The position numbers were made by a program, and so were the translations under genes. The notes under the pieces were generated by a model that searched no databases, was not told the origin of the DNA, and worked only from the letters and a program-made list of their open reading frames with translations. From an uncultured Gammaproteobacteria bacterium (lineage in GTDB: Bacteria; Pseudomonadota; Gammaproteobacteria; Arenicellales; JAANXG01), in the NCBI GenBank assembly GCA_945787105.1, contig CALZGZ010000287.1, positions 1 through 48,597 on the forward strand: a stretch of 48,597 nucleotides of DNA. Reading direction: 5' to 3'. Shown piece after piece: positions 1-46,176 of the stretch (the first letter of the stretch is position 1; every line of letters begins with the position of its first letter).

Positions 1-54
1 AATGACGATGGCTATAGCAATGACGATGGCTATAGCAATGACGATGGCCATAGA
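1..54 (+). repeat. 18-bp tandem repeat, three in-frame copies
   Basis: The unit AATGACGATGGCTATAGC occurs at 1-18 and 19-36 exactly, and at 37-54 with a C for T change and an altered end. It encodes NDDGYS in the frame of the truncated CDS and may continue upstream of the window. Being 18 bp, copy-number change would keep the frame. Confidence 0.9.
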
Positions 55-2897: not shown

Positions 2898-5800
2898 GTG
2901 TCAATACAACGCTTTACGGACATAGTAGTATGTGGAATGGCTTCCAAAAGCGCATCCGACCCAGAAATTGACGTCGCCGTCTGGCTTGAACGACTAGGGC
3001 TTGATGAATTCGCTGCCGCCTTTGCGCAAAACAAGATTGATGCTGTCGCGCTAAAGCTTCTATCAGAAGATGACCTCAAGGAGCTTGGTGTCGTCGCGCT
3101 TGGCGACCGTCGAAAATTGAGCGCGGCGATTTCGGAACTTAGCCAGGAACACGTCTCGAGCCCGCATGGACGTACCGAACTCCCACCGGACCCCCAAACG
3201 GGCTCTCCACTCTCGTACACACCATACCATCTCGCAACCAGAATCCTGCATGAGCGTGGTGACTTAAAGGGTGAGAGAAAACACGTCACCGTGTTGTTCG
3301 CAGACATTAAGGACTCAACAAGTTTGATCGAACATGCCGACCCAGAAGAAGCGGCGCAGAAACTTGGCCCAGCAATCTCGCACATGATGACGGCGGTGCA
3401 CCAGTACGAGGGAACTGTAAACAAGGTGCAGGGTGACGGCATCATGGCCTTGTTTGGTGCCCCGCTGGCGCATGAAGACCATGCCCAAAGAGCATGTATG
3501 GCCGCACAGGCAATGCTCGAATCGATTGCAGATACGGGCGATTCAGCGGTCGAGCTACGTATCGGACTTCATTCCGGCGACGTTCTCGTACGCACAATCC
3601 ACAACGACCTTTCGATGGACTATGACGCGATTGGCGCCACCGTTCATTTAGCTAGTCGCATCGAACAGCTCGCACGCCCTGGAAGCGTTTTTATGACGGC
3701 AGCGACGCAGGCGCTTATAGAGGGTTTTTTCGAAACCCAATCGCTAGGAGCCAAACCGGTCAAAGGCATGAGCCGTGACGTCCAGGTGTTCGAGCTTATT
3801 CGGCGGACTCGCCTGGTGACACGATGGGAGGCCCGATCGGCCCGTGAACTTACCAACTTTGTTGGCCGGCGAGTCGAGCTTGAGTCGCTACTGCGGTCAG
3901 CGGATCGCGCTCTATCCGGACAAGGCGAGTTAATCGCTTTGGTTGGTGAAGCGGGTATGGGCAAATCGCGACTCCTTCACGAACTACTACGCGCGCCACA
4001 GATTACTGACTGGCTGGTGGTGCAGACTGGCACTTCACCATTCGGAATCTCCGCCGCATTCATGCCGCTCGGAATATTACTTCGATCACTGTTCGGAGTT
4101 AGCGAGGGCGACACCAAGAGCGAAATAAACAATAAAATCCAAGAAGGTTTACGGCGGTACGACGTGTCGACGGGCGCCTTGCCCTCCGCCGTTCGGTTTC
4201 TGCTCAACTCGCAAATCGACGATCCGGCATGGATCGCCCTTGATCCACAGCAGCGCCGTAATGTGATCATTGAGGAACTTCGCCGTTTTCTCCTTCAGAT
4301 CGCACACAAGCAACCACTGCTTCTTATTTTCGAAGATTTGCACTGGATTGACTCAGAGACGCAGCGACTGCTCGACGCGCTGGCAGGAAGCCTCGGCGCT
4401 CACCGGTTGTTGCTGATAGTCACCTACCGACCCGAGTATCATCATGATTGGGCCGTGAAGAGCTACTACACGCGAATTCGCGTTGATCCGCTTGGAGATG
4501 CGACGGCGCACGCGATGCTGGATGCGCTCCTAGGTTCTTCGGCAAAGTTAGAGGTCCTCAAGGGTGTTCTCATCGAAAGGACTCAGGGACGACCTCTATT
4601 CGTTGAGGAACTTGTTCGCTCTCTCAAGGACGCTGGGATTATTTCTGAATCGGAAGACTCAATCGATTTAATCGGCAACGTTGATCAGATTGAGATACCG
4701 GGGTCAGTCCAGGACGTCATAGCATCACGAATTGACCGCTTGGAACCTGAACTAAAAAGCCTGTTACAGATTGCTTCAGTCATTGGGCGTCGCGTCCCCG
4801 TGGCGCTAATAAAGTTGGTTACAGATTCACCTGCCTCTGCGATAGAGCGCCAGTTAGCCAAACTCCAGGAAATGGAATTTCTATACGAGGCGGGTGATGG
4901 CACCAACCCCGAGTTCCTTTTCAAACATGCGCTAACCGAGGAAGTGACCTACGTGTCTTTGGTTCACGAGATGCGCAGAACACTACACGGGAGATTGGTT
5001 GACGCAATCGAAATCGAGTACGCTGACCGATTGGAAGAGAATTGCGAGGTCATTGCAAGACACGCGCTTGCTGCCGAACGCTGGGCACAAGCCTATGACT
5101 ATAGCCGTAAAGCCGCAAGGAAAGCGCACGCCCGATCAGCCTATCAGGCTGCTATTGAATGGTTCGACCAGGCAGTGGCCGCGCTCGATCGCCTACCCGA
5201 GGCTGAAGATCAGCTCGCTGACAAAATGGATGTTCGACTCGAAATGCGCATCGCTCTGTGGCCGCTCGGGCAGCATGAATTGCTGGCGCGCAGGGTACGC
5301 GAAGCGGGCGTATTAGCAGAGCGGGCTGGTGACACGTTACGGCTTGCGATTGTTCACAACTACCTTACAGCCCACCACTGGCAGGCCGGAGAGCACAAAA
5401 AGGCGATCAAAACCGGCGAGAAGGGCATAGCCCTCGCCGAACAAGCGGATGATTTTTCCGTCCTCGCCACAACCAAGCAACATCTGGGGCTGGCTCTACT
5501 CGCCCGAGGAGACTATGCACGACAGACCAAGCTCCATCGTGAGGTCGTTCAGTCGCTGGTTGGGAAACAAATGCTGCAACGCCATGGCATGGCGGGTTAT
5601 CCAGCCGCACTTTCACGCGGCTTTCTGGCATATGGGTTGGCTGAGCTCGGCGAATTCTACGAAGCATTCCGCTGGGCGCATGAAGGCGTTGAGATTGCCC
5701 ATCAGGTGAATAGCGCCATGACGACCGTATGGGTCACAAACAATCTGGCGCTGACTCACCTCATGCAGGGAGAGCCGGAGAAGTCCCTCGAGTTGATGCA

Positions 5801-6242
5801 GCCAAATTTCGAGCTTTGTTGTAAATCCGAGGTCAAGCTCTTGTTCTCTCAAACGGCCGGTATTTTGGGTCGTACCCTGACCATCGTCAGTCGACCACTC
5901 GAGGGAATCAAGGTTCTCGAGCAGGCAACTCATCCGGACAATCTTGAACACCACACTGAGGGAATGGGCTATCCGATTGTCTGGCTGGCATTGGCAATGC
6001 TCGCTTCTGACAGACTAGCGGATGGACTTGGTCACGCACATCGCGCGCTCAAGATTGCTACCACGCAAGGTGAGCGCGGACACCAGGCATGGGCCCTGTT
6101 CGCGCGAGCGGAAATGGAGGCCGCATTAGCGCATTATCCTGAGCAACAGCCAAAGACCTACAACCTGGCACTGCAGATCGCCGAAGAATGTGAGATGCAC
6201 CCATTGGCTACACTGTGCCGCTCGAGACTTAGCGCCGGTTGA
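2898..6242 (+). CDS. Multidomain SAM / class III cyclase / AAA ATPase / TPR protein
   Basis: A 1114-residue signalling protein. Residues about 21-85 look like a SAM domain (VWLERLGLDEFAAAF). Residues 127-302 are a class III nucleotidyl cyclase domain with the metal aspartates in LFADIKDS (D136) and QGDG (D180). The transition-state Asn position is His (TVHLASR, 249-254), a variant I associate with this architecture. An AAA/STAND-type ATPase follows, with Walker A GEAGMGKS at 350-357 and Walker B LLLIFEDLHW near 475-484. The rest, from about 690, is helical TPR-like repeat. The layout suggests a cAMP-producing or cyclase-like scaffold regulated by ATP and protein partners. Start is uncertain: GTG 2898 gives the full frame, and ATG 2937 (MASKSASD) directly precedes the SAM domain; neither has a strong ribosome site. 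Confidence 0.88.
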   Translation: MSIQRFTDIVVCGMASKSASDPEIDVAVWLERLGLDEFAAAFAQNKIDAVALKLLSEDDLKELGVVALGDRRKLSAAISELSQEHVSSPHGRTELPPDPQTGSPLSYTPYHLATRILHERGDLKGERKHVTVLFADIKDSTSLIEHADPEEAAQKLGPAISHMMTAVHQYEGTVNKVQGDGIMALFGAPLAHEDHAQRACMAAQAMLESIADTGDSAVELRIGLHSGDVLVRTIHNDLSMDYDAIGATVHLASRIEQLARPGSVFMTAATQALIEGFFETQSLGAKPVKGMSRDVQVFELIRRTRLVTRWEARSARELTNFVGRRVELESLLRSADRALSGQGELIALVGEAGMGKSRLLHELLRAPQITDWLVVQTGTSPFGISAAFMPLGILLRSLFGVSEGDTKSEINNKIQEGLRRYDVSTGALPSAVRFLLNSQIDDPAWIALDPQQRRNVIIEELRRFLLQIAHKQPLLLIFEDLHWIDSETQRLLDALAGSLGAHRLLLIVTYRPEYHHDWAVKSYYTRIRVDPLGDATAHAMLDALLGSSAKLEVLKGVLIERTQGRPLFVEELVRSLKDAGIISESEDSIDLIGNVDQIEIPGSVQDVIASRIDRLEPELKSLLQIASVIGRRVPVALIKLVTDSPASAIERQLAKLQEMEFLYEAGDGTNPEFLFKHALTEEVTYVSLVHEMRRTLHGRLVDAIEIEYADRLEENCEVIARHALAAERWAQAYDYSRKAARKAHARSAYQAAIEWFDQAVAALDRLPEAEDQLADKMDVRLEMRIALWPLGQHELLARRVREAGVLAERAGDTLRLAIVHNYLTAHHWQAGEHKKAIKTGEKGIALAEQADDFSVLATTKQHLGLALLARGDYARQTKLHREVVQSLVGKQMLQRHGMAGYPAALSRGFLAYGLAELGEFYEAFRWAHEGVEIAHQVNSAMTTVWVTNNLALTHLMQGEPEKSLELMQPNFELCCKSEVKLLFSQTAGILGRTLTIVSRPLEGIKVLEQATHPDNLEHHTEGMGYPIVWLALAMLASDRLADGLGHAHRALKIATTQGERGHQAWALFARAEMEAALAHYPEQQPKTYNLALQIAEECEMHPLATLCRSRLSAG

Positions 6243-6464
6243 ATTAACTCCCGCTATCGCAACATGAACGAGTTGTGACGTAGGCTTTTATACTTTGTGG
6301 GACAGCAGCGGGCCAGTACCCTTACATGGATTTTGCGTACCGCACGGGTGTTGATGATACGGACCGGTCGGCGCAGGGACATCGACAGGCCAAGTGAGTT
6401 CCTGAGGATCTGCCCGTCAAGCGTTAACATGGCTGTTGTGTATCGGCTTAATTTTCCGAACAGA

Positions 6465-6508
6465 AGACGGCAGAGTTATTCTACCAAAAAATAAATCTGT
6501 CCCCATTA
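6465..6508. repeat. GGGGACAG-type palindrome, copy 1
   Basis: The right arm AAATAAATCTGTCCCC is intact; the left arm GACGGCAGAGTTATT is degenerate. The element ends 9 nt from the stop codon of the minus-strand bacteriohemerythrin gene, reading GGGGACAG... away from that stop. Confidence 0.75.
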
Positions 6509-6516
6509 CGATCGGC

Positions 6517-6927
6517 TCACGACGCGCCGTCTGTTTCGTGAACCGATAGGTGGAAACGCGCGTCATAGGTTGTATGGTGGTCGTGAAACCAGTTTTGTAT
6601 CCGCTCAGCGAGTGCGTGGCTATCCTTCATCAACCCGTATTGGTGCTCGTACATCATGAGGGTGACCTCATTAAGCAGTCGTTGATGATCCGCGTAATGT
6701 TTCACGTAGTCGTTGCTATAGGCATGCGCCTGCATTATCGCCTCCTCGCGCGCAAAGTGTTTGCAGGCACTACTGAATAACTTCACGAGATTATCGGTGG
6801 TAGCGGCTTTGGACCGACGCGGTTCAAAGTCATCGGAAAAACGGTTCAGGAGTTCGATAAGGTGGCGGTGGTCTGCGTCTAAGATCGGCTCGCCAACTGA
6901 GAACTCGGGTTTCCATTCGATAAGCAT
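6517..6927 (-). CDS. Bacteriohemerythrin (O2-binding di-iron protein)
   Basis: A 136-residue hemerythrin with the full ligand set visible: the His of DADHRH, HFAREE (His and Glu), the two His of KHYADH, and the His and Asp of HHTTYD near the C-terminus. It opens with the typical IEWKPEFSVGEPILD. Bacteriohemerythrins bind O2 reversibly at a di-iron site and serve in oxygen storage, delivery or sensing. Start taken at ATG 6927: GAGGAG lies 8 nt upstream, whereas a GTG at 6936 would overlap that ribosome site. Monocistronic; a GGGGACAG palindrome abuts its 3' end. Confidence 0.92.
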   Translation of the reverse strand: MLIEWKPEFSVGEPILDADHRHLIELLNRFSDDFEPRRSKAATTDNLVKLFSSACKHFAREEAIMQAHAYSNDYVKHYADHQRLLNEVTLMMYEHQYGLMKDSHALAERIQNWFHDHHTTYDARFHLSVHETDGAS

Positions 6928-7109
6928 TATGTGCACTCCTCACCGAGTCAATACATCGCGTAGATTGTTGGGACGGTAAGCCCCTGCGGAAAAAGACTTC
7001 TCTCGACGGGTACCATCGACGACAAGCGGCTTGGCGATGAGGGGATACCTCCACAATAAGGGTAGTACAATGCGTACGAACGGCGAGCATGACGCGACGA
7101 AAGGGCGAA

Positions 7110-7760
7110 TCCTGAAGATACACGGACTTCCAAAGGAAAAGAATTTCCTCGCCTTGGTGCCTCGTTATCCGCTGTCACAGGTTGTTCCTCGCCGGGGTAT
7201 AGGTCATCGCCGAGGAACACTCGGTCTTTCGTGCATTCAGCCGCCGATCCCCACCGTGTTGGCACCACTTGTGCAAACCATCAGTCAACGGGTCGCACAG
7301 TACCCGGAGCGTCACCGACTGTCGCTGCGGGTTATCGAGAACAGGTCCCTCAATTTGGAGTCGACGCAAACCGCGACCCCGGACGATCTGATAGGCGATT
7401 CCGCCAGTTACCAGATTGCCGTCGGCCCTCAGGCCGGCCGCAAGGCGCTCACGCTACCGACCGGTCCGGCGCGGGGAGGAAGATCGCGGCGACAATAGGT
7501 TGGCCACGGCATGCGGATGCTCGCGACACGCCGACGTAGCGGCCCAAGCACATGACCCATCAACGGTGAATGCTGGAACGGCTGCGCCGGTGCATTACAC
7601 GACTGGCGTTCTCTACCGAACAATTGGAATTGACGAACCCGGGGAATATTCGTTATGACGTGACCGGATGCACTAACGTCGCGGGCGCATGGATGCGCAG
7701 GAGCGACCACACTCAAAATGCCGCATCGAGACGGCTCGACACAGGGCTTAGCTAGTGCAA
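7110..7760 (+). pseudogene. IS91-family transposase remnant, frameshifted
   Basis: Three forward frames carry consecutive pieces of an IS91-type transposase. Frame A (about 7220-7490) contains LVQTISQRVAQY, a degraded 'ENSYL' region, then SASYQIAVGPQAGRKALTL. A second frame has HADVAAQAH near 7532-7558. A third (7570-7665) has LERLRRCITR followed by LELTNPGNIRYDV. KMPHRDGST near 7714-7740 matches the KTPYRDGTT block in yet another frame. Order and spacing agree with the family as I remember it (IAVGPQAGRKVFTLQTLP, then the C-terminal blocks). The N-terminal zinc and catalytic Tyr region is missing or unrecognisable upstream of 7200. No flanking ends were identified. Confidence 0.72.
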
Positions 7761-7853
7761 ACCGGTTCTTTAAGCATGTCTCTCTGTCTATCTTCGCCGA
7801 CTATCATGTGCTTAAAATGGAATCGTCACCGACTCTCTATTTGAGGCAGGCGC

Positions 7854-9569
7854 ATGGGAATCCGAGACTGGTTGAAGGGGCGGCGCCACGTCGCGGATGC
7901 TGCGCAAACGCCAGCAGCCATCGAGCAGGAGTATGCTGGCCCGGTCGCTACGGCCAACACCTCTGAACCCACGACCACAGATGTCTTGGCCGCGGAGCGC
8001 GACGCAAAGCGTGCGCTGAGCACGCTTGCGGATGTCGTAGACCAGGAATCTCTCGCCCGCGTCGCGGCTACGGCTGCCCTCGCAGCGGTCAGGAAAGCCG
8101 CGGTAGATCGATTGAATGACGACGAAACCCTGGTGCGTATCGCCAATTCCGACTCGGACCCGGGTGTGCGCCAGCGCGCGGTCAAGCGCATTGAACGCCC
8201 TGAATTTCTTGTTGGAATCGCCTTGACCACCGGTGATGCCGGTTTAGGAAAAACCGCAGTCCGCCGCCTTGGGGCGACGACCCTGCTCGCCGATGTGGCC
8301 CGCGGCGCGAGCCTTCGAGCCGTAGCCCAGCAGGCCGTCGCCATCATTAAGGACCAGGACTTGCTCAAAGATGTTGCCATCGGCGCCGGTGATCGGAGCG
8401 TGGCCAAGGCGGCGGTCAAGAAGATTTCCGACCAACGGATATTGGTCGGAGTCGCTGGCTCGGCACCCGACGAGATCGTCTGCCGGACGGCGGTAAAGAG
8501 ACTGCGTGACGATGATTTCCTGATCGATATCGTGCGCCACAGCAGCTCGATCGATGTGCGGCGTTGCGCAGCCGCGAAACTGCGTGATCAAACCTCACTG
8601 GCGAAGGTTGCAGCGACACACACGGATACCGAGATTCGGCATGCGGCGATTGCGCGGCTCAGGAATGAGCAGGCTTTGTTCGTGGTGGCGGCAAACGACT
8701 CAGAGTCGGAATTGCGCCTGACGGCGACTGGCAGGATCGAGCAACAGTCCACGCTGATCCGGCTCGCGACCGAGAGTCTGCATGACAACACCCGGTTGGC
8801 CGCGGTCCGCCGCATCCACGACCGCGGCGTGCTCACCGAGGTCGCGAAGACCGATGTGGACCCGCCGGTCCGGTGCTGTGCCGCCCACAGAGTGCGTAAT
8901 CGTGGCATGCTTACCGACATTGCCGAGAACGGCCGGTACGCGGATGCCCGCGCCATTGCCGTGCGCAAGCTGAAAGATACGACTCACATGGCCTCCATCG
9001 CAACCGGCGACGCTGATCCGCAAGTGCGCAAAGCCGCGGTTTGTAAGATCGATAAACAAGAACTGCTATGTGCAATTGCCCGTATTGATGGCGACTGGCG
9101 TGTCCGGCGCGCAGCTGTCGAGCGCATTAAGAATACAGAAGAGTTATGCGCGCATGCCAAAAACGATGACAGCTGGCAGGTCCGTGCGCTGGCGGTTGAG
9201 CGCATCGACGATCGTGCGACGCTGATAAACCGGGCTAAGTGGGATAAGACGTGGCAGGTGCGAAAGGCTGCCCTCAAGATGCTCGACGATCAGACGGTCC
9301 TTGCCAACCGTGCAAAAAACGACGAAGACTGGGGTGTGCGTCGTGTCGCGGTCCAGAAGCTGACCGATCAATCCCTGCTGGCAAACCGCGCGCAGTGGGA
9401 CGAAGACGCTCGCGTTCGCCGCGCTGCGGTGGCGCGGCTTGCCGACGATGTCATTTTGGCCAAGATTGCCCGCAGTGACTTGGACAAATCGGTACGGGCC
9501 GATGCTGTCTTCAGGTTGCAAAGCCTGACTTCTCAACCTGGCCGCACACCGGTGGAGACCGGGGGTTGA
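7854..9569 (+). CDS. HEAT/LRV-like repeat protein with fixed 26-residue period
   Basis: A 571-residue, probably cytoplasmic protein (no signal peptide or membrane segment). After a short N-terminus (MGIRDWLKGRR) and a linker to about residue 50, the rest is a regular array. Each unit runs VRxxAVxRLxDxxxLxxxAxxDxDxx and is 26 residues long; I can register about 18 successive units without an indel. Late units carry Trp and acidic residues before the VR. Short alpha-alpha repeats of this type (HEAT, leucine-rich repeat variant) form solenoids for protein binding. The fixed 26-residue period is between LRV (about 24) and HEAT or PBS-lyase repeats (about 27 or more). Partner and function unknown. 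A GAGGCAGG ribosome site precedes the ATG. Confidence 0.85.
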   Translation: MGIRDWLKGRRHVADAAQTPAAIEQEYAGPVATANTSEPTTTDVLAAERDAKRALSTLADVVDQESLARVAATAALAAVRKAAVDRLNDDETLVRIANSDSDPGVRQRAVKRIERPEFLVGIALTTGDAGLGKTAVRRLGATTLLADVARGASLRAVAQQAVAIIKDQDLLKDVAIGAGDRSVAKAAVKKISDQRILVGVAGSAPDEIVCRTAVKRLRDDDFLIDIVRHSSSIDVRRCAAAKLRDQTSLAKVAATHTDTEIRHAAIARLRNEQALFVVAANDSESELRLTATGRIEQQSTLIRLATESLHDNTRLAAVRRIHDRGVLTEVAKTDVDPPVRCCAAHRVRNRGMLTDIAENGRYADARAIAVRKLKDTTHMASIATGDADPQVRKAAVCKIDKQELLCAIARIDGDWRVRRAAVERIKNTEELCAHAKNDDSWQVRALAVERIDDRATLINRAKWDKTWQVRKAALKMLDDQTVLANRAKNDEDWGVRRVAVQKLTDQSLLANRAQWDEDARVRRAAVARLADDVILAKIARSDLDKSVRADAVFRLQSLTSQPGRTPVETGG

Positions 9570-9973
9570 GCGGCGCACCGCGCAGGGCGACACACTTTGT
9601 TGATCGTCGCACATGCCAGCGTCCAAAGTCTGCCAAGCTTGACGGGAGCGGCGCGGTTCTCGCGCTGGATAAGAAGACAGGGTGACTATGAAAGGCGTTG
9701 TAGCGGTGGTGCTGGGGCTAATTACCGGAGCAGTGTATTGACTATAGTCAAGACCGTGTCGAAAGCCCCGCGGTGACTGCTTATGTATGAGTCTGCGTGG
9801 GCACATCACGGCACTGGTATCGGTCAATATTCGCAAGCGCGGCATCGATATCACAAACAAATTCCCGAAAAAGCAGTATTAATTTGTTACCGATGCCGCA
9901 AGCATCGAATGCCGAGACGCCCTGGAACAGATTGAGGGCGTCATTCCCGGCGCGCAGAGTGCTTGTGAGTGGC
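9570..9973. other. Gene-free stretch
   Basis: About 400 nt between the repeat protein and the convergent ABM-like gene. Only very short frames are present: one of 31 codons starting near 9787, and a 17-codon hydrophobic one near 9688. None shows a convincing ribosome site or family. I see no RNA gene or repeat here; it may be decayed coding DNA. Confidence 0.5.
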
Positions 9974-10291
9974 CTAAGGAGAGCCCATGCTTGTCATTAG
10001 TGCGCCGCGCTTGGTGGCTACCACTTCACCAGCCGTTATCTGCGGAGGGTTGGGGAGCAACGCCGCGACATTATCCTGGACCCATCCTGCTGCTCTTTGA
10101 TTTGATTCTTCGGCTGTAAGCTTGTCGTTGAAGATGCTCACCGAGACGAATTCCCCTGCTCCCGCATCAATAACGTAGTAGGCCACGAGCCCCTGGATCT
10201 TACTGATCAAAGGCACGAAGTTTTTCCTCACCAATTGCGCTGCTTTGCTCGCATCTGTCACGCCTTCGTAGCGCCGTATCATTGCATACAT
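9974..10291 (-). CDS. Antibiotic biosynthesis monooxygenase (ABM)-like small protein
   Basis: A 105-residue protein opening MYAMIRRYEGV, with FVPLISKIQGLVAYYVIDAG and FVSVSIFNDKLTAEESNQRA, then a C-terminal LLPNPPQITAGEVVA. This is the pattern of a small dimeric alpha/beta-barrel (ABM-like) family common in proteobacteria. The enzymatic role is unproven; such folds include monooxygenases and stress proteins. GGAGG lies 6-10 nt before the ATG at 10291. It stands alone and is convergent with the gene to its left. Confidence 0.75.
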   Translation of the reverse strand: MYAMIRRYEGVTDASKAAQLVRKNFVPLISKIQGLVAYYVIDAGAGEFVSVSIFNDKLTAEESNQRAAGWVQDNVAALLPNPPQITAGEVVATKRGALMTSMGSP

Positions 10292-10452
10292 CGGTTACCT
10301 CCGCCCCGCGATTTTTCAACAATGAATATAATCATATTACTGCGTACTCTCCCGCACTCTACGCCATCGAGCGGTCAAAATGGAAGCATTACACAACTGG
10401 GAAATAACACCGCCGCTGAAGTAGCGGGAAAAATGCAGATGCTAGAACTGAC

Positions 10453-10517
10453 AAAAAGGTGTCGGTGACGATTTTTACTTTCGAACCGCTATCTGTAATC
10501 GTCACCGACCCCTTTTT
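10453..10517. repeat. Long inverted repeat (AAAAAGGTGTCGGTGACGATT type)
   Basis: GTCGGTGACGATT at 10461-10473 is the exact reverse complement of AATCGTCACCGAC at 10497-10509. The arms extend outward through an A-run and a T-run, with a central loop of about 23 nt. It lies about 20 nt beyond the 3' end of the minus-strand GST, so it could also act as its terminator. It looks like another REP-type family, distinct in sequence from the GGGGACAG palindromes. Confidence 0.8.
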
Positions 10518-10538
10518 AAGAGGTGTATGGTCAGCCCT

Positions 10539-11315
10539 TCAGGCGTCGGCGTTGAGCGCGGGCCGGTGTTTTGCTTGTATCGAATTTCGGCGTTGCTCCC
10601 GATAGGTGATGTTTACCCACCTGAAGAAGGGCTGATCCCGATATTGTTGCTGCAGGGCGCGGAACGGCCCTGGAAACACTTCCGCGAATTTATCGATCGG
10701 TTTGCAGAGGTGCTCGAGTAAGGCGCACGCCGTAAGGTCTGCTCGCGTGAAGCTATCGCCCACCAGAAACTTGCGGTCTTTAAGCTCACTGTCCAGGCGC
10801 GTCACCGCGTCTGACAAACGGCGCTCCGAATCTTTCGCCGTGTTCTCGTTGATGTCCATCATCTCGATCATCGCATCACGGACTTTGGGGAACATCAGTG
10901 CGAACAGGGGCTCCCCGTACCACGGGCCCTCATGCAGTAGAAACGTCAATGCGGTCCGTCTGATTGGCAACGCGTGATAATAGAATAAGGCCCGCAGGGT
11001 GACGCCGACCTCTTCGTCCAGATACGCCTCCCAGTCTCGCGCCTGTTTGGCAAGATTGGGGTCACCGGGTGTCAACGGATCGGAGGCATGCTTGGCGTCC
11101 AGATGATCGATGATGGCAGCAGATTCCTGTATCACAGATCCATCGTCTTCGACCAGGACCGGGACACACGTTTTCGCGACTGCGAGCTTCTTGCGAATAC
11201 GCACATGTAGACCTGGCAGTAGATTCTTGGTGGTGTATTTCGCGCCTTTGTAATCCAGCGCCCAACGCGCTTTCTCGCAGAAATGCGAAAACGAAAACTG
11301 GTATAGCGTTGTCAT
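10539..11315 (-). CDS. Glutathione S-transferase family protein (second)
   Basis: A 258-residue GST-like protein: thioredoxin-fold start TLYQFSFSHFCEKARWALD, the cis-Pro region TCVPVLVEDD, the glutathione-site QESAAII near residues 63-69, then a helical domain with FLVGDSFTRADL, the conserved N-capping box of GST C-domains. A Cys in SHFCEK could take the place of the catalytic Ser or Tyr. Substrate unknown. It is not closely related to the GST at 1595. It is a single gene with no obvious SD; its start overlaps the upstream region of a short forward frame. Confidence 0.85.
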   Translation of the reverse strand: MTTLYQFSFSHFCEKARWALDYKGAKYTTKNLLPGLHVRIRKKLAVAKTCVPVLVEDDGSVIQESAAIIDHLDAKHASDPLTPGDPNLAKQARDWEAYLDEEVGVTLRALFYYHALPIRRTALTFLLHEGPWYGEPLFALMFPKVRDAMIEMMDINENTAKDSERRLSDAVTRLDSELKDRKFLVGDSFTRADLTACALLEHLCKPIDKFAEVFPGPFRALQQQYRDQPFFRWVNITYREQRRNSIQAKHRPALNADA

Positions 11316-11763: not shown

Positions 11764-14700
11764 TCATCCGGCGACCGCCTTTTCTGCGGCGCCTTCCTCC
11801 AACCCGCTGGATCTGCGATGAAAAAGCGAATACACGGCCGGGACTAATACCAGTGTAATCAGAGTCGATGTCGCGAGACCACCGACCACGGCGCGGGCCA
11901 GCGGCGCCTGGGCATCGGTGCCCTCGCCGATACCCAATGCCAGCGGCAGCAGCGCGAGAATCGTGGTAAACGTGGTCATGAGCACCGGCCGCAGACGCCG
12001 CCTACCGGCTTCGGCCACGGCGTCCCGGGTTTCCAGACCTTCGCTGCGCAACTGGCCTGCCTGGTCCACCAGTAAGATGGCGTTGTTGACCACGATGCCC
12101 CCCAGCATGATGCAGCCGATGGCGGACTGAAGGTTCAGCGTCGTGTCGGTGAGAAACAATGTGAGTACAACCCCTACCGCGGCCAGCGGCACCGAGAGCA
12201 TCACCACCAGCGGATCCACCAGAGATTCGTATTGCGATGCGAGCACCATATACACCAGCAGCAAAGCTAGGAACAAGGAGATGAGTAGTTCGTCGAACGC
12301 TTTTTGCTGTTCTTCAAAGTTACCAGCGATCATCAGATCGTAGCCTGTGGGCCGCGGGATTTGGTCCAGGCGTTCCTGCACGTCCGCGGCAACCGAGCCG
12401 AGGTCGCGACCGGCGACGTTAGCAGTCACGTTGATAAGCCGCTGCTGATCCTTGCGCTCGATGGTTACCGGACCAGATCCTGTTTCCGCGGATACCAGGT
12501 TGCGCAGCACAACCAGATCGCCATCGGGGATACGCAGCATCAGGTCGAGGATCTCGTCCAGCGAACGTTTCTCTGCGTCTTCCAGTTGCACCAGGATGCG
12601 GTAGGAGTTGCCCTGGGCGCGATACTCTCCGGCGGTAGAACCGGCGACTGCGGTCTCGATGACGCGGGTGACGTCGCGCACGGTCAAGCCTAGATCCGCA
12701 ACCTTGTCTCGATCTACAAGAATCACCCGCTGCGGAATGCCCGCCTCGCGGCTAAGCTCCACGTCCGTGACGCCGTCGACGTCGTTGATGCCGTCGGCGA
12801 CCCGGCGTGCGAGCAGGTCGAGGGTATCCAGATCAAATCCGCGCACTTCGACGATGATCCCTTCGGCGTTGGCCAAGATGCGCTCCAGCAGGAACTGCCC
12901 GCGGGGCGCGCGCACTCGGATCTTCGCCCCGGGAACCCCTTCTTTTTCGAACTGCCGGCGCAGGTCTGCGGCGATCTCGCTATTAGAACGCTGCCGCTGC
13001 GCCGCAGGTACCAGCGAGACGCGGATTTCGCCTATCGCCGCCGCGTTGCCACGGGCGCCGGAAGTAATCATGCTGACCACCGAGGATACCGCCTCGGGCA
13101 CCGCAGCATCGACGACCTTTTCCATGCGTCGCGTTTGTTGATCGATCAAATCCATGCGCGTGCCGACTTCGAACTGACCGGTGACGCGAACTTCGCCCTC
13201 GTCGCTTGGCGGCAGAAACTCGGTGCCCAGAAAAGGCGCCAGCAGCAGGCTCGCGGAAAAGACGGCAACGGACAACAACACCACGGTCCAGGGCATTCGC
13301 AGAACGGCGCGCAGCAGATCCCGGTAGCCGTTCTCCAGCGCCTCGAATCCGGCACCTGCCCGCGCCGAAAGCCGGTTCGTCCATCCGCTAGACACCGTTG
13401 CCCCGGGAGCGGCGAGTAGTCGGGAGCCCAGCATCGGCACTAGGCTCAAAGCCACCAGTAGTGAACAGAACAGCGAGAACATAATGACGTAGGCGAGTTC
13501 TTTGAACAGCACGCCGGTAAGGCCTTGCACGAATACCAGCGGCAGGAATATCACCAACGTGGTGACGGTACCGGCGATGACCGCCGAGCTCACCTCGCGG
13601 GTACCGTTGACCGCGGCCGCGACAGGCTCTTCGGCGAATTCCTGCCGGCGGCGGAAGATGTTTTCCAGCACTACTACGGAGCTGTCCACCATCATGCCGA
13701 CGCCGAGTGCCAGACCGCCCAGCGTCATGAGGTTCAGCGTGAAGCCACCGAAATACAGCAGCGCGAAGGTTGCGCCCACGGAGATCGGGATGGCGAGCGA
13801 AATAACCAGCGTGCTGCGCAGGTCACGCAGGAAGAACAACAGCACCAGCACTGCCAGCGAGCCGCCGTACAGCACCGACCGCGCCACGTTGGTGATGGCG
13901 CGTTCGATAAAGTTGCCTTGGTTGATGACCGGCACGATGCGGATCTGCGGAAACTGCTTGTTGACGGACTCCACCTCTGCCAACACCCGACGCGCGACCT
14001 CCACAGTGTTTTCATTGGCCTGCTTGCGAATGGCCACGCGCAGTCCACGTTCGCCGTTCACGCGGATGATGCGGGATTGTTTCTCGTAGGTGTCCTTGAC
14101 CTGGGCAATCTGGTTTAAGGTCACAACGGTTCCGTCGCGCCGCGCGATCACCGTGTTGCGGATCTGATCCAGATCAACGAAATCCGACGGCGCGCGCAGC
14201 GTGACTTCATAGCGGCCCTCTTCGATCTTGCCGGCTGGAAGGTCCAGGTTGGCGTTGCGGATGGCGCTCAGCACGTCGTCCAGCGGCAACCCCAGGGCGT
14301 TGATCTTGGCAGGGTCTAGCTCGACACGAACTTCGCGGTTGAACCCACCCCAGGGGTCCACCTGGGCAACGCCAGCGATTCGGGCGAAACGGTAGCGGAT
14401 CTGGTCCTCGACAATCTGTGTCAACTCGACCGGGTCGAGCTTGCTGGAGATTCCCAGAAGCACGACAGGGAAGCTGTCGACATCAAACTTGGTAACCCGC
14501 GGTCGGTTAATCTCATCGGGCAGCTCGCTGATTTCGTCCTCGATGGTGGCCTGGACGTCCAGCGCCGCTTTGTCGATATCGGTCCCCCATGCAAAGCTCA
14601 CGCGCACCCTGCTGTTTCCTTCATAGGATTGCGAGGTTATCTCAACCACCCCCGGCACAGTGGCAACGATCTCCTCGACGATCTGCGTGACTAGGCGCTC

Positions 14701-14877
14701 CATCACAATGGGATCCGCGCCTTCGTATTCGGTGCGCACGGTGACGGTAGGCAGCTCGATGCTCGGCAGCAGGTCGATTTGCAGCCGGGTGAGCGCCACC
14801 GCACCGAGCACGACCACGATCAGCGTCACCATGCTGGTGAACACCGGCCGGCGGACACTCGCACGGGCCAGATTCAA
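11764..14877 (-). CDS. RND efflux transporter, inner-membrane permease
   Basis: A 1037-residue protein of the AcrB/MdtB size class. It has the N-terminal TM segment (about 13-31) after the typical RRPVFTSM. Two large periplasmic loops follow, and TM clusters near 335-480, 530-545 and 865-1020. TM4 has [15 protein letters not shown], keeping the first relay aspartate (D398, cf. AcrB D407) but with Ser in place of the second, a variant seen in several RND subfamilies. It exports a drug, lipid or metabolite by proton antiport with the adaptor encoded just upstream. The start is TTG at 14877, overlapping the adaptor stop (TTGA) with GGGGAG upstream, so the two are coupled. No outer-membrane factor gene is adjacent, so a TolC-like partner elsewhere is inferred. 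Confidence 0.93.
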
Positions 14878-16049
14878 GGCGTTCTACTCCCCACCCGTCC
14901 GCCGATGGAGACCGCAGACTTGTCGTCCAAGAGCTGCTGGCCGAGCGTGACAACCTGCGTAGTCAGGCCATTGCCGGTGACCTGCACGCGACCATCCTGG
15001 TGGAACCCCACCTCGACTATACGCCACGATACCGACCGTCCGTCATCCGTGATGACGAAGACACCGTCGCGTCCGTCGCGACGCACCAGCGCGTGCCCCG
15101 GCACAATGGTGGCATCTTCTACCCGGTCCAGCACCACGGTGGCGCGCACGAACATACCCGGCTTCAGTTGCAGTTCGGGATTATCAATACCGACCTCCAC
15201 CCGCGCTTGACGGGTGCTTTCATTAAACACCGGTGCAATGCGCGCGATGCGTCCTTCGAACACTGCACCAGGGTGGGCGTCAGTGCGCAAACTGACCGCC
15301 TGTCCGGTTCGCAGCAACGTGTAGTCGCGCTCGGTGACGAAAAACACCGCGATGATGGGATTCATTTCGACGATGCGCAGCAACGGCGCGTTGGCGGCCA
15401 CGGTTTGGCCTTCATCCACATAGCGTTCCGCCACCACCCGCTGATCGTTGCCCCCCCGCCAACCGGCAGTGACATTGGTATAGTCGAGACGAATTCGCGC
15501 CGTCTCGAGTGCCGCCTGCGAGCGGATGACCTCGGCGCTGGTGACTTTCACACGGGCTTGTTTGGCGAATTGATCCGCTGTCGCAGTGTCGCGTTGGGAC
15601 TCTGAAGCGACGCCGCGCGTGTGCAGCTTTTCCACGCGCTGCAATTCCCGTTCGGCGATGTCCAGCAAGCTCTCGGCTTCGGCAAGGTTGGCCTTCGACA
15701 CCGCGAATTCCGCCTCCGCCTGTGCCACGGACTGTACGTATTCATCGTCGTCGAGCTTCGCCACGCGCTGGCCGCGCGTGACCGTGTCGGCCAGGTCGAC
15801 GTTCAAACGTTCAACGCGACCGCTGACTTTAGAGGCGACGACGAATTCAGCCTTGGGATCCAAGGTGCCGGTAAAAGTCCGGCGATGCTCGATAGGACCG
15901 CGTTCGATCGTGGCCACTTCCACCGGCACCGCGCCGCCATCGCCGCGGCGGGTCGGTTTTTTCGTTAGATCCTGAACTCGGCCAATGCCCGCCCAGGTGA
16001 GCGCCCCGACCACAGCCAGCACCAGCACTATCAAAACCCAGCGTCTCAT
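14874..16049 (-). CDS. RND efflux periplasmic adaptor (membrane fusion protein)
   Basis: A 391-residue HlyD/AcrA-type adaptor. It begins [20 protein letters not shown], an uncleaved anchor or signal segment. It then shows the barrel-sandwich pattern [19 protein letters not shown]...GQRVAKLDD, a long coiled coil rich in Ala, Glu and Gln, the second lipoyl half, and the beta-barrel block [15 protein letters not shown]. It links the RND pump to an outer-membrane channel. I prefer ATG 16049 because the membrane segment starts there; the frame extends to GTG 16124, which would add 25 polar residues. No good SD is visible for either. First gene of the two-gene operon. Confidence 0.9.
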
Positions 16050-16813
16050 GCGCACTGATTTTAGCGGATAACCCTGAACATTGTCTGAACGGTGCCGCGA
16101 CGACGGGCGGGTATTAGCTTGCACCGTCGTCGGACGGCTGCCGCATGCGCAGAATCGGTGCTACGCCTCCCATGCCTGGGTCGGCCCCCAGACCCGTAGT
16201 CGGCATCCCCGCCCCGCCGGGCGCTTCAGTCCGAATGTTAGACATACTAATTTAGACCTCGGGTTGATCAATTTATATTCGCCTTCATGCAGTAGCGAGA
16301 ATGAGCGACAGATTTATTATTCTAAAGATACGACTGGACAAGAATTAATCTGTCGCCATTTTTAATTTTACCGGAACCCGCGACTCGGTGGGGATTGATG
16401 GGCGCGTCTGATACAAGGATTCTGACCCAGGTTGGCTCAAAACAAACGTGTCATTACCGCGCAGCAGGACGGATTTTCGGATCTGTTTGTTACCCGGTGA
16501 CGATCGGATGAGACTCAAGCGTCTATCCGCCATGGTAAGGAACGCTAACGAATAACCGTAATCATCGCTAGCTTTTCGGACATGGAAACCGTATAGTGCA
16601 CGCCTCCCTGAATGGGACCTTGCGTTTCTAACCCTCCTGAACGGTTTGATTACCCTCCCTGGTTGGCAACGTACGGCGGCTCTCAAGCTTAACAGTCGAC
16701 GCCGCCAACGAGTGAACCAGACGATGTATTTAGCTTCGGCGTAACTCCATCCACGTTGGTTTTTTTATCTATTTAACGGTCTGCCTGTAATCAGGTGGAC
16801 GGTGTACACATTT
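16050..16813. other. Gene-free divergent intergenic region
   Basis: About 760 nt between the divergent adaptor and helicase genes, so promoters for both must lie here; no clear -35/-10 pair could be fixed by eye. It contains one palindrome (16304-16364). A 113-codon minus-strand frame at 16345-16686 overlaps that palindrome, has no family resemblance and is judged not to be a gene. RhlE-type helicases often have long cold-responsive leaders; whether this one does is unknown. Confidence 0.5.
16304..16364. repeat. GGGGACAG-type palindrome, copy 3 (variant GCGACAG)
   Basis: GCGACAGATTTATTATTCT and AGAATTAATCTGTCGCC are inverted arms separated by about 17 nt. The matching GGGG to GCGA change in both arms indicates compensatory change, so the stem itself is probably what is conserved. 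Confidence 0.8.
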
Positions 16814-45474: not shown

Positions 45475-46176
45475 TCATTTTCCGTTGCCGCCGGCGTTGA
45501 GGACGCACGCGAATAACGCGGCTAGTATGTAGGCGACTGAGGCCGCGGTTGCGACTTCAATGGCCATCATGACCTCCCGCGCAGCAAACTGCGGATGGTT
45601 TAGGAATGTCCCGGTCACGACGGCCACCGCGACGCCCGCGAGCAGAAACACCCCCAACGCCGCCGGTGCGAGCCAGTAACCCCGCCGGACGGTAACCGAG
45701 GATTCGGCACCGCTGCCGAGCTGCCAGGCAACGGCCGCCGCCGCTACCACCGCACCCGCCTGCAACGCACCCCCCGGCGCGTCGGTCCCGCGCCACAGCA
45801 GGTAGGCGGCGACGAGCAGCAGCGGCGCGAGCAGCAGGCGCGCCAGCATACGATCCACAGACCCGTCCACCGGACTCTCCAGCCTGGCAGATGGACGCAC
45901 GAGTCGCTCATGCGACGGCCCGCTCAGGGTGCTCGCCGTGAGCCACGCCAGCAGCAACACCCCCATCTCGAGCAATGTGTCGTAACCGCGGAAGTCGAGG
46001 AGCACCGCCGTCACCGGGTTGTCCACCCGCGTTTGCGCCAACGACCGAACCACCAGATCCTGCAAGCCGGGGGAATCCGCTTGATAGGCGAGCACGCCCG
46101 CCGCGACCAACCCCAAAGCGAGCAGCCCCGCGAGCAGCGCAAGCCAACCCTCGAGGCTGTGATGCCGACGTTTCAC
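45475..46176 (-). CDS. mrpB: Mrp-type antiporter subunit B (MnhB domain)
   Basis: A 233-residue protein. The N-terminal part has VDNPVTAVLLDFRGYDTLLEMGVLLLAW, the typical MnhB N-terminal block, and the C-terminal part has GGALQAGAVVAAAAVAWQL, the MnhB domain with its GGGFxxG-like turn, ending in several TM helices. GTG 46176 overlaps the stop of the preceding gene (GTGA), which supports this start over the much longer frame. Subunit of the Mrp-like complex. Confidence 0.85.
   Translation of the reverse strand: MKRRHHSLEGWLALLAGLLALGLVAAGVLAYQADSPGLQDLVVRSLAQTRVDNPVTAVLLDFRGYDTLLEMGVLLLAWLTASTLSGPSHERLVRPSARLESPVDGSVDRMLARLLLAPLLLVAAYLLWRGTDAPGGALQAGAVVAAAAVAWQLGSGAESSVTVRRGYWLAPAALGVFLLAGVAVAVVTGTFLNHPQFAAREVMMAIEVATAASVAYILAALFACVLNAGGNGK

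What the first reader, a model, noticed from the sequence alone, without database searches (positions are those of the whole stretch)
7854..9569. Solenoid of about 18 repeats with an unbroken 26-residue period
The unit VRxxAVxRLxDxxxLxxxAxxDxDxx repeats every 26 residues (78 bp) with no insertion or deletion that I can find. This differs from LRV (24) and usual HEAT lengths, so it may be a distinct repeat class. Trp-containing units near the C-terminus suggest a specialised binding face.
Basis: seen in the sequence. Interest (0 to 1): 0.55.

Follow-up and report, generated by a model that had tools for sequence, protein, structure and literature searches.

The report
Regular 26-residue helical repeat scaffold protein
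This gene encodes a long rod-like protein built from about nineteen copies of one short pair of helices; it belongs to the broad HEAT kind of protein-binding scaffolds, but its unusually short, rigidly kept unit and a strongly conserved patch near one end mark it as an undescribed variety worth testing.

Summary
Window 7854-9569 encodes a 571-aa protein with a 26-residue period (mean BLOSUM62 1.12 at lag 26; maximum in 200 shuffles -0.31). There are 18 exact units (residues 79-546), a degenerate cap unit before and a half unit after.

AlphaFold predicts a helix10-loop3-helix10-loop3 unit (pLDDT 89), also seen in a 39%-identical relative.

"Distinct repeat class" is only partly supported. Pfam scores the protein as HEAT (29.9 bits, cut-off 23.5). 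By sequence its nearest solved relatives are the 24-residue LRV protein 1LRV (E 1.8e-5) and 31-residue alphaReps. The same unit builds the N-terminus of many DUF349 proteins. I call it a compact LRV/HEAT-like variant.

What stands out is an array kept in register in two bacterial groups, with units 15-17 best conserved (0.61 against 0.38). The Trp at unit position 25 also occurs in 1LRV and alphaReps, but W415, W463 and the Asn-Arg pairs of units 16 and 17 are invariant in 14 of 14 sequences.

Most likely function: a stand-alone protein-interaction scaffold with a ligand site in its C-terminal third. The site is inferred from conservation; the partner is unknown.

The parts
7854..9569 (+). CDS, 571 aa, stand-alone 26-residue-repeat solenoid
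7854..8009 (+). N-terminal tail, residues 1-52: short predicted helix 3-15 with a recurrent M(G/D)[ILF]xDW[LIM][KR]xRR-like start, a low-confidence linker (10-38), then most of cap helix 41-59
   Evidence: start sites of relatives chosen by me from the printed frames; hydrophobic moment beats shuffles (p<0.05) in only 4 of 15 sequences, two of them near-identical
8010..8087 (+). Degenerate N-terminal cap unit (unit 0), residues 53-78
8088..9491 (+). 18 exact 26-residue units (78 bp each), residues 79-546
9024..9179 (+). Units 13-14 (residues 391-442) with Trp at unit position 25 (W415, W441)
9180..9413 (+). Units 15-17 (residues 443-520), most conserved stretch: W463-D464, N485-R486-x-K488-x-D490, N511-R512-A513, D516; inferred ligand site
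9492..9566 (+). C-terminal half unit (predicted helix 545-559) and short tail

Best explanation
The gene encodes a stand-alone, probably cytoplasmic (inferred) alpha-solenoid of about 19 minimal HEAT/LRV-like hairpins. Each hairpin is two 10-residue helices joined by 3-residue turns (predicted). The packing core is V1, A5, L9, L15 and A19, and Asp22/Asp24-Arg2 between units resemble the HEAT Asp/Arg ladder (inferred from sequence). It works as a protein-interaction scaffold. The rod presents a conserved ligand site in units 15-17: Asn-Arg at positions 17-18 of the second helices (invariant in units 16 and 17, variable in unit 15) plus Trp/Asp/Lys around the turns. The disordered tail with its recurrent DWL-RR-like start could be a second docking or anchoring point. 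Shown: periodicity, register conservation, conservation hot spot, predicted fold. Inferred: scaffold role, ligand site, tail role. Partner unknown.
For: Period and unit. Fold: (mean pLDDT 89.4 and 85.1, same 10-3-10-3 pattern). HEAT over the cut-off in the window protein and at E<=0.1 in 13 of 13 members of A1. Structural neighbours of the model are scaffold/adaptor solenoids (Integrator, Vac8, alphaRep, 1LRV, beta-catenin, PP2A-A). Units 15-17 have cross-group identity 0.61 against 0.38 elsewhere, reached in 0 of 5000 permutations within unit positions. W415, W463, D464, N485, R486, K488, D490, N511, R512 and D516 are invariant in 14 of 14 sequences. No gene keeps a fixed place beside it across the loci compared. 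No catalytic domain was found by Pfam or NCBIfam.
Against: No partner, phenotype or localisation is known. HEAT-like folds also bind nucleic acid and can be catalytic (recalled: AlkD). I had no model coordinates, so faces are deduced from helix periodicity. In unit 15 the Asn is in 9 of 14 and the Arg in 12 of 14. L062 lacks three of the Trp (W441, W467, W493). The N-terminal helix is not clearly amphipathic. Part of the conservation in units 15-17 could be structural.
Confidence: 0.6

Rival explanations
1. Nucleic-acid or ribosome-linked solenoid: the repeats bind RNA/DNA or a translation protein, as a stand-alone counterpart of DUF349 proteins.
For: Window protein pI 9.5; K/R in 81% of unit position-8 residues over 14 sequences; the same unit forms the N-terminus of DUF349 proteins; a mycobacterial protein discussed with DUF349, MSMEG_2731, binds RNA/DNA and ribosomal protein S1 (PMC3348880, passages seen).
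Against: Net charge of the solenoid runs from +16 to -13 in 14 sequences. Arg at position 8 also occurs in the 1LRV units shown, so it may be structural. The window protein has no DUF349 domain, and whether MSMEG_2731 has these repeats was not tested. Three genomes (G445, G446, G529) hold a stand-alone relative and also a separate frame of over 1000 aa with the repeat, members of the A4 set in which 35 of 37 carry DUF349.
Confidence: 0.2
2. Membrane- or pole-associated structural rod targeted by the N-terminal DWL-RR-like helix, acting by its fixed length as a spacer.
For: A similar N-terminal start recurs across divergent sequences while the following linker varies in length and sequence. In 7 of 7 relatives of the gamma group aligned with the window protein there is no indel between residues 60 and 556 (L013 and L016 not aligned there).
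Against: Hydrophobic moment beats shuffles at p<0.05 in only 4 of 15 sequences. Indels of 1-4 residues occur in distant relatives, and an 11- or 17-residue loop after residue 478 in two of them.
Confidence: 0.12
3. A decaying or neutral repeat array without a constrained function.
For: No match in 4 of 13 genomes of its family, one of them 98% complete (G010; the others 74, 77 and 89%).
Against: Codon pattern, register kept across two groups, invariant C-terminal patch.
Confidence: 0.02

Closest known systems
Leucine-rich repeat variant protein, PDB 1LRV (Azotobacter vinelandii by recall)
   Same: Best PDB hit of the family profile (E 1.8e-5) and of the 3-unit profile (E 4.5e-4); shares the VRxxVAxRL first helix, Arg at position 8 and D-x-D-W-x-V-R. 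VIA-align Z 16.0, rmsd 3.6 over 216 residues.
   Different: The 1LRV unit is 24 residues, two fewer in the second half (alignment). No Cys in residues 1-209 here, so no N-terminal Fe-S cluster domain (LRV's is recalled). Second helix predicted as a regular 10-residue helix.
PBS-lyase HEAT-like / alphaRep repeats
   Same: D-E-D-W-Q-V-R motif, two-helix unit, profile hits (E 1.3e-4; 1.4e-3), VIA-align Z about 16. That alphaReps derive from HEAT-like repeats is stated in the abstract passage of PMC3754942.
   Different: 31-residue unit in the alphaRep alignment; Ala, not Arg/Lys, at position 8 there.
N-terminal repeats of DUF349 proteins
   Same: Same 26-residue unit: best lag 26 in 33 of 41 frames fetched with my profiles; hhalign probability 98.8, E 5e-17; 35 of 37 long frames carry DUF349.
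   Different: Only a few units with interrupted spacings (28-31, 76, 102), followed by DUF349 domains; the window protein has none.
Canonical HEAT (PP2A-A, Pfam PF02985)
   Same: Helical hairpins with Asp/Arg pairs; PF02985 29.9 bits against a cut-off of 23.5.
   Different: About 40 residues per unit in canonical HEAT (PMC11514114, passage) against 26; no single stretch passes alone.
[quoted passage not shown]
   Same: A named repeat of about the same length (25-26; PMC2996958, passages).
   Different: The passages describe variable-number 25-residue amphipathic repeats, many in ORFs with membrane-targeting sequences; neither DUF285 nor TIGR02167 is listed for the window protein.

Membership tests
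HEAT repeats (Pfam PF02985) | Whole-protein score over the curated cut-off | tested here: met
   29.9 against 23.5 bits, but as a sum of weak stretches; HEAT at E<=0.1 in 13 of 13 members of A1. Two distant members sit near or under the cut-off: L020 23.7, L021 21.1 bits
HEAT repeats (Pfam PF02985) | Two helices per unit stacked into a solenoid | tested here: met
   AlphaFold models, (prediction; helix pattern and solenoid neighbours; no coordinates read)
HEAT repeats (Pfam PF02985) | Unit of about 40 residues | tested here: not met
   26 residues; length of HEAT from a passage of PMC11514114
LRV (Pfam PF01816 / 1LRV) | Score over the Pfam LRV cut-off | tested here: not met
   Not listed at E<=1; search of the own genome with PF01816 at E<=10 gave one match elsewhere, 12.4 bits, under the cut-off of 21.6
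LRV (Pfam PF01816 / 1LRV) | 24-residue unit of 1LRV | tested here: not met
   26 residues; the 24 is read from the alignment. Pfam's model itself has 26 positions
LRV (Pfam PF01816 / 1LRV) | Second helix of the 3-10 type (recalled) | tested here: inconclusive
   DSSP prints H for a 10-residue second helix; the output does not separate helix types
LRV (Pfam PF01816 / 1LRV) | N-terminal Fe-S cluster domain (recalled) | tested here: not met
   First Cys is residue 210
alphaRep / PBS-lyase HEAT-like | 31-residue unit | tested here: not met
   26 residues; 31 read from the alphaRep alignment
DUF349 proteins | DUF349 domain | tested here: not met
   No hit; none in the own genome at E<=0.01
DUF349 proteins | N-terminal 26-residue repeats | tested here: met
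TIGR02167 / DUF285 26-residue surface repeat | Match to its models | tested here: not met
   Neither DUF285 nor TIGR02167 is listed for this protein in Pfam (E<=1) or NCBIfam (E<=0.1); I did not check that TIGR02167 is in that NCBIfam release

The most novel reading that the evidence does not exclude
A compact 26-residue (10-3-10-3) helical repeat, intermediate between the 24-residue LRV and the 31-residue HEAT-like unit, is an unrecognised class of its own. It is shared by DUF349 proteins and by a stand-alone family whose ~19-unit array was complete before two bacterial groups parted or exchanged it. That family carries an Asn-Arg/Trp ligand groove of unknown specificity in its C-terminal units.
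Probability: 0.4. Interest if true: 0.45.

Novelty: new variant of a known kind. Interest (0 to 1): 0.3.

Why it matters
It gives a natural, very regular repeat shorter than the units of HEAT and alphaRep, with a nearly fixed unit number, which could be useful as a design scaffold. It also suggests a defined repeat name for the N-terminal part of many DUF349 proteins, and it points to a specific conserved patch that can be tested for a ligand. None of the rows listed by the eight literature searches here is, by title and abstract, about a 26-residue HEAT-like unit; several of these searches listed only the top 10-20 of hundreds or thousands of papers, and most subscription papers are not in that library.

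Tried and rejected
Chance or low-complexity origin: rejected by shuffles. Phage, plasmid or defence origin: no tblastn match among plasmids or phages at E<=1e-4; 29 pattern matches in viral contigs, none a relative; PADLOC 0 families and PHROGs only E>=0.019. Fixed operon partner: no gene keeps its place beside it across the loci. Shared flanks are seen only in the close pairs L012/L019, L013/L016 and L020/L021; other genes recur nearby in other positions (GST/glyoxalase genes upstream in the window and downstream in L011; a helicase and a flippase-like gene downstream in the window and upstream in L019; a hemerythrin-like ORF upstream in both the window and L011). Amphipathic N-terminal anchor: weak. 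Half-unit (13-residue) duplication: lag 13 scores -0.55, no sequence trace. Replacement of DUF349: in 80 relatives the window's family has the solenoid in 9 of 13 and DUF349 in 0 of 13, other families 0 of 67 and 24 of 67. However, G445, G446 and G529 have the solenoid and a separate long repeat-bearing frame, and 43 of 67 have neither, so exclusion is not general. NCBIfam gave only hits far under the cut-offs. RNA families: none at gathering score in 6200-10600. The PARCEL/TIGR02167 26-residue repeat: a different motif, not listed.

Caveats on counts. The frames were fetched with profiles of the 26-residue unit, which favours that period; of 45 frames, L084 was dropped as a wrong frame and three duplicates (L048, L077, L085) were collapsed. 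L029 was not put in the DUF349 scan because its frame is cut; it showed no DUF349. Searches scored only the first 3, 9 and 14 candidates per genome, so their tallies are lower bounds. L019 (nearly the same as L012) was left out of the counts; L013, L016 and the fragment L022 were not in that alignment. One search took the longest frame of each locus, which was wrong for L024, L025, L029 and L035 (corrected). The script failed and the motif was mis-spaced and found almost nothing; one search replaces both. A notebook entry that gives the solenoid as present in 10 of 13 is wrong; one search shows 9 of 13. The row of L021 given to AlphaFold lacked its first four residues because of the coordinates I chose.

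Full report
Observation. The ORF 7854-9569 (+) encodes 571 residues. The lag-26 mean BLOSUM62 score is 1.12, the next peaks are its multiples, and lags 24, 25 and 27 are negative; the maximum in 200 shuffles is -0.31. Laid out in register, residues 79-546 form 18 units without any indel, preceded by a degenerate unit (53-78) and followed by a half unit. The unit consensus is VRxaAVxRLxDqxxLaxiAxxDxDxx. A5 is in 18 of 18 units, L15 in 17, A19 in 17, R2 in 14, and R or K at position 8 in 16. The DNA has lag-78 identity 0.443 but no TRF array, so the repetition is old and kept at protein level. Codon differences against the 89%-identical relative L011 favour third positions.

Fold. AlphaFold2 with a 13-row alignment gives mean pLDDT 89.4, pTM 0.67, and helices of almost always 10 residues separated by 3-residue turns. 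A second model, of a 39%-identical protein from a record titled Deltaproteobacteria (L021), gives the same pattern (pLDDT 85.1), with its 17-residue insertion in a partly low-confidence loop. Rows within one Z are tied, whole-model TM-scores are low (0.08-0.32 in the 50 rows), and repeats score high by common arrangement, so this supports the class of fold only.

What kind of repeat. Pfam HEAT passes its cut-off on the whole protein (29.9 against 23.5 bits) although no single stretch passes; HEAT_2 does not pass, and LRV is not listed. The Pfam LRV model has 26 positions, and the own-genome search with it gives nothing at this gene. The plain sequence finds nothing credible in the PDB (best E 0.72), but the family profile finds 1LRV (E 1.8e-5) and an alphaRep (E 1.3e-4). 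The alignments show 1LRV units of 24, with two residues fewer after the VRxxVAxRL helix, and alphaRep units of 31. The 26-residue unit therefore lies between the two.

Other proteins with the period. A search of 369 genomes of the class found 40, the own included, with matches at E<=1e-5. The listed hits were mostly frames of about 880-1080 residues. Of 37 such frames (cut at locus ends) collected and scanned, 35 carry DUF349. The best lag is 26 in 33 of 41 frames, and 41 of 124 motif spacings are exactly 26 where shuffles expect 0.04 (frames chosen by profile, so biased towards 26). Profile-profile comparison aligns the family with the DUF349 N-termini at probability 98.8, E 5e-17. A shorter protein, L024 (297 aa), also has the period. 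In the window's own genome the only convincing match to the 3-unit profile is this gene (7 of 8 matches; the eighth has E 0.69). A sample of 398 genomes of the phylum gave 11, the own included, with matches at E<=1e-5.

Distribution. Nine of 13 genomes of the window's family (own included) have the protein, and none of 67 other genomes of the order. A genome-contig scan gave 12 loci, some of them close duplicates. In the class of the L020 genome, 10 of 148 genomes match at E<=1e-10: 8 have stand-alone relatives (one a fragment) and 2 only long frames of the DUF349 set. Units keep their order: the best match of a unit is the same-numbered unit in 18 of 18 for L017, 14 of 18 for L059 and 7-9 of 18 for the other six distant sequences (1 of 18 by chance); in those six, same-unit identity is 0.36-0.43 against 0.26-0.30 for other units. 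The array was therefore probably complete in their common source, although half of the units no longer find their counterpart best.

The conserved site. Across 7 by 7 cross-group pairs, units 15-17 have identity 0.61 against 0.38 for the rest; 0 of 5000 permutations within unit positions reached it. Invariant in 14 of 14 are W415, W463, D464, N485, R486, K488, D490, N511, R512 and D516, among others. W441, W467 and W493 are in 13 of 14 and W515 in 9 of 14; in unit 15, N459 is in 9 and R460 in 12 of 14. Position 18, hydrophobic in 14 of the 18 window units, is Arg in units 15-17. The Trp at position 25 recurs in 1LRV and alphaReps, so it is partly a generic turn feature. The Asn-Arg pairs and the Trp at position 21 are the more specific signs.

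Function. No catalytic domain was found and no neighbour with a fixed place, and the net charge is not conserved (+16 to -13). A protein-interaction scaffold is the most likely role (0.6). A nucleic-acid or ribosome role (0.2) rests on kinship with DUF349 proteins; MSMEG_2731, from the one paper found for 'DUF349 domain', binds nucleic acid and ribosomal protein S1 (PMC3348880, passages seen). A membrane or spacer role (0.12) rests on the recurrent N-terminal start, whose amphipathicity is weak.

Verdict. A real, very regular and conserved member of the HEAT/LRV kind, not described in the papers I could search: a variant, not a new kind.

Noticed in passing
window 2898-6242 (+): 1114-aa protein with SAM domain, class III adenylate/guanylate cyclase domain, AAA_16 ATPase and TPRs; PADLOC Pycsar-cyclase models match only its cyclase part.
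   Followed up: partly
window 1-53: 18-bp tandem repeat (2.9 copies, 97%) at the very start of the window, inside an ORF that runs in from the left.
   Followed up: no
window 6517-6936 (-): 139-aa ORF with a sub-cut-off hemerythrin match; its 72%-identical counterpart also lies upstream of the solenoid gene in L011.
   Followed up: partly
window 11764-16124 (-): RND efflux permease and periplasmic adaptor pair.
   Followed up: no
L024:1453-2343 (-): 297-aa frame with 26-residue repeats and a hydrophobic stretch after a Met near its start that looks like a signal peptide by eye: a possible exported version.
   Followed up: partly
family f1 (G000-G012): No DUF349 match at E<=0.001 in 13 of 13 genomes, while 24 of 67 other genomes of the order have one.
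   Followed up: partly
L020:7895-9358, L021:7572-8870: A DUF1329 protein (89% identical between the two, domain seen in L021) lies convergent and downstream of the solenoid gene in these two relatives.
   Followed up: partly
window 45806-45848: 15-bp tandem repeat, 2.8 copies.
   Followed up: no
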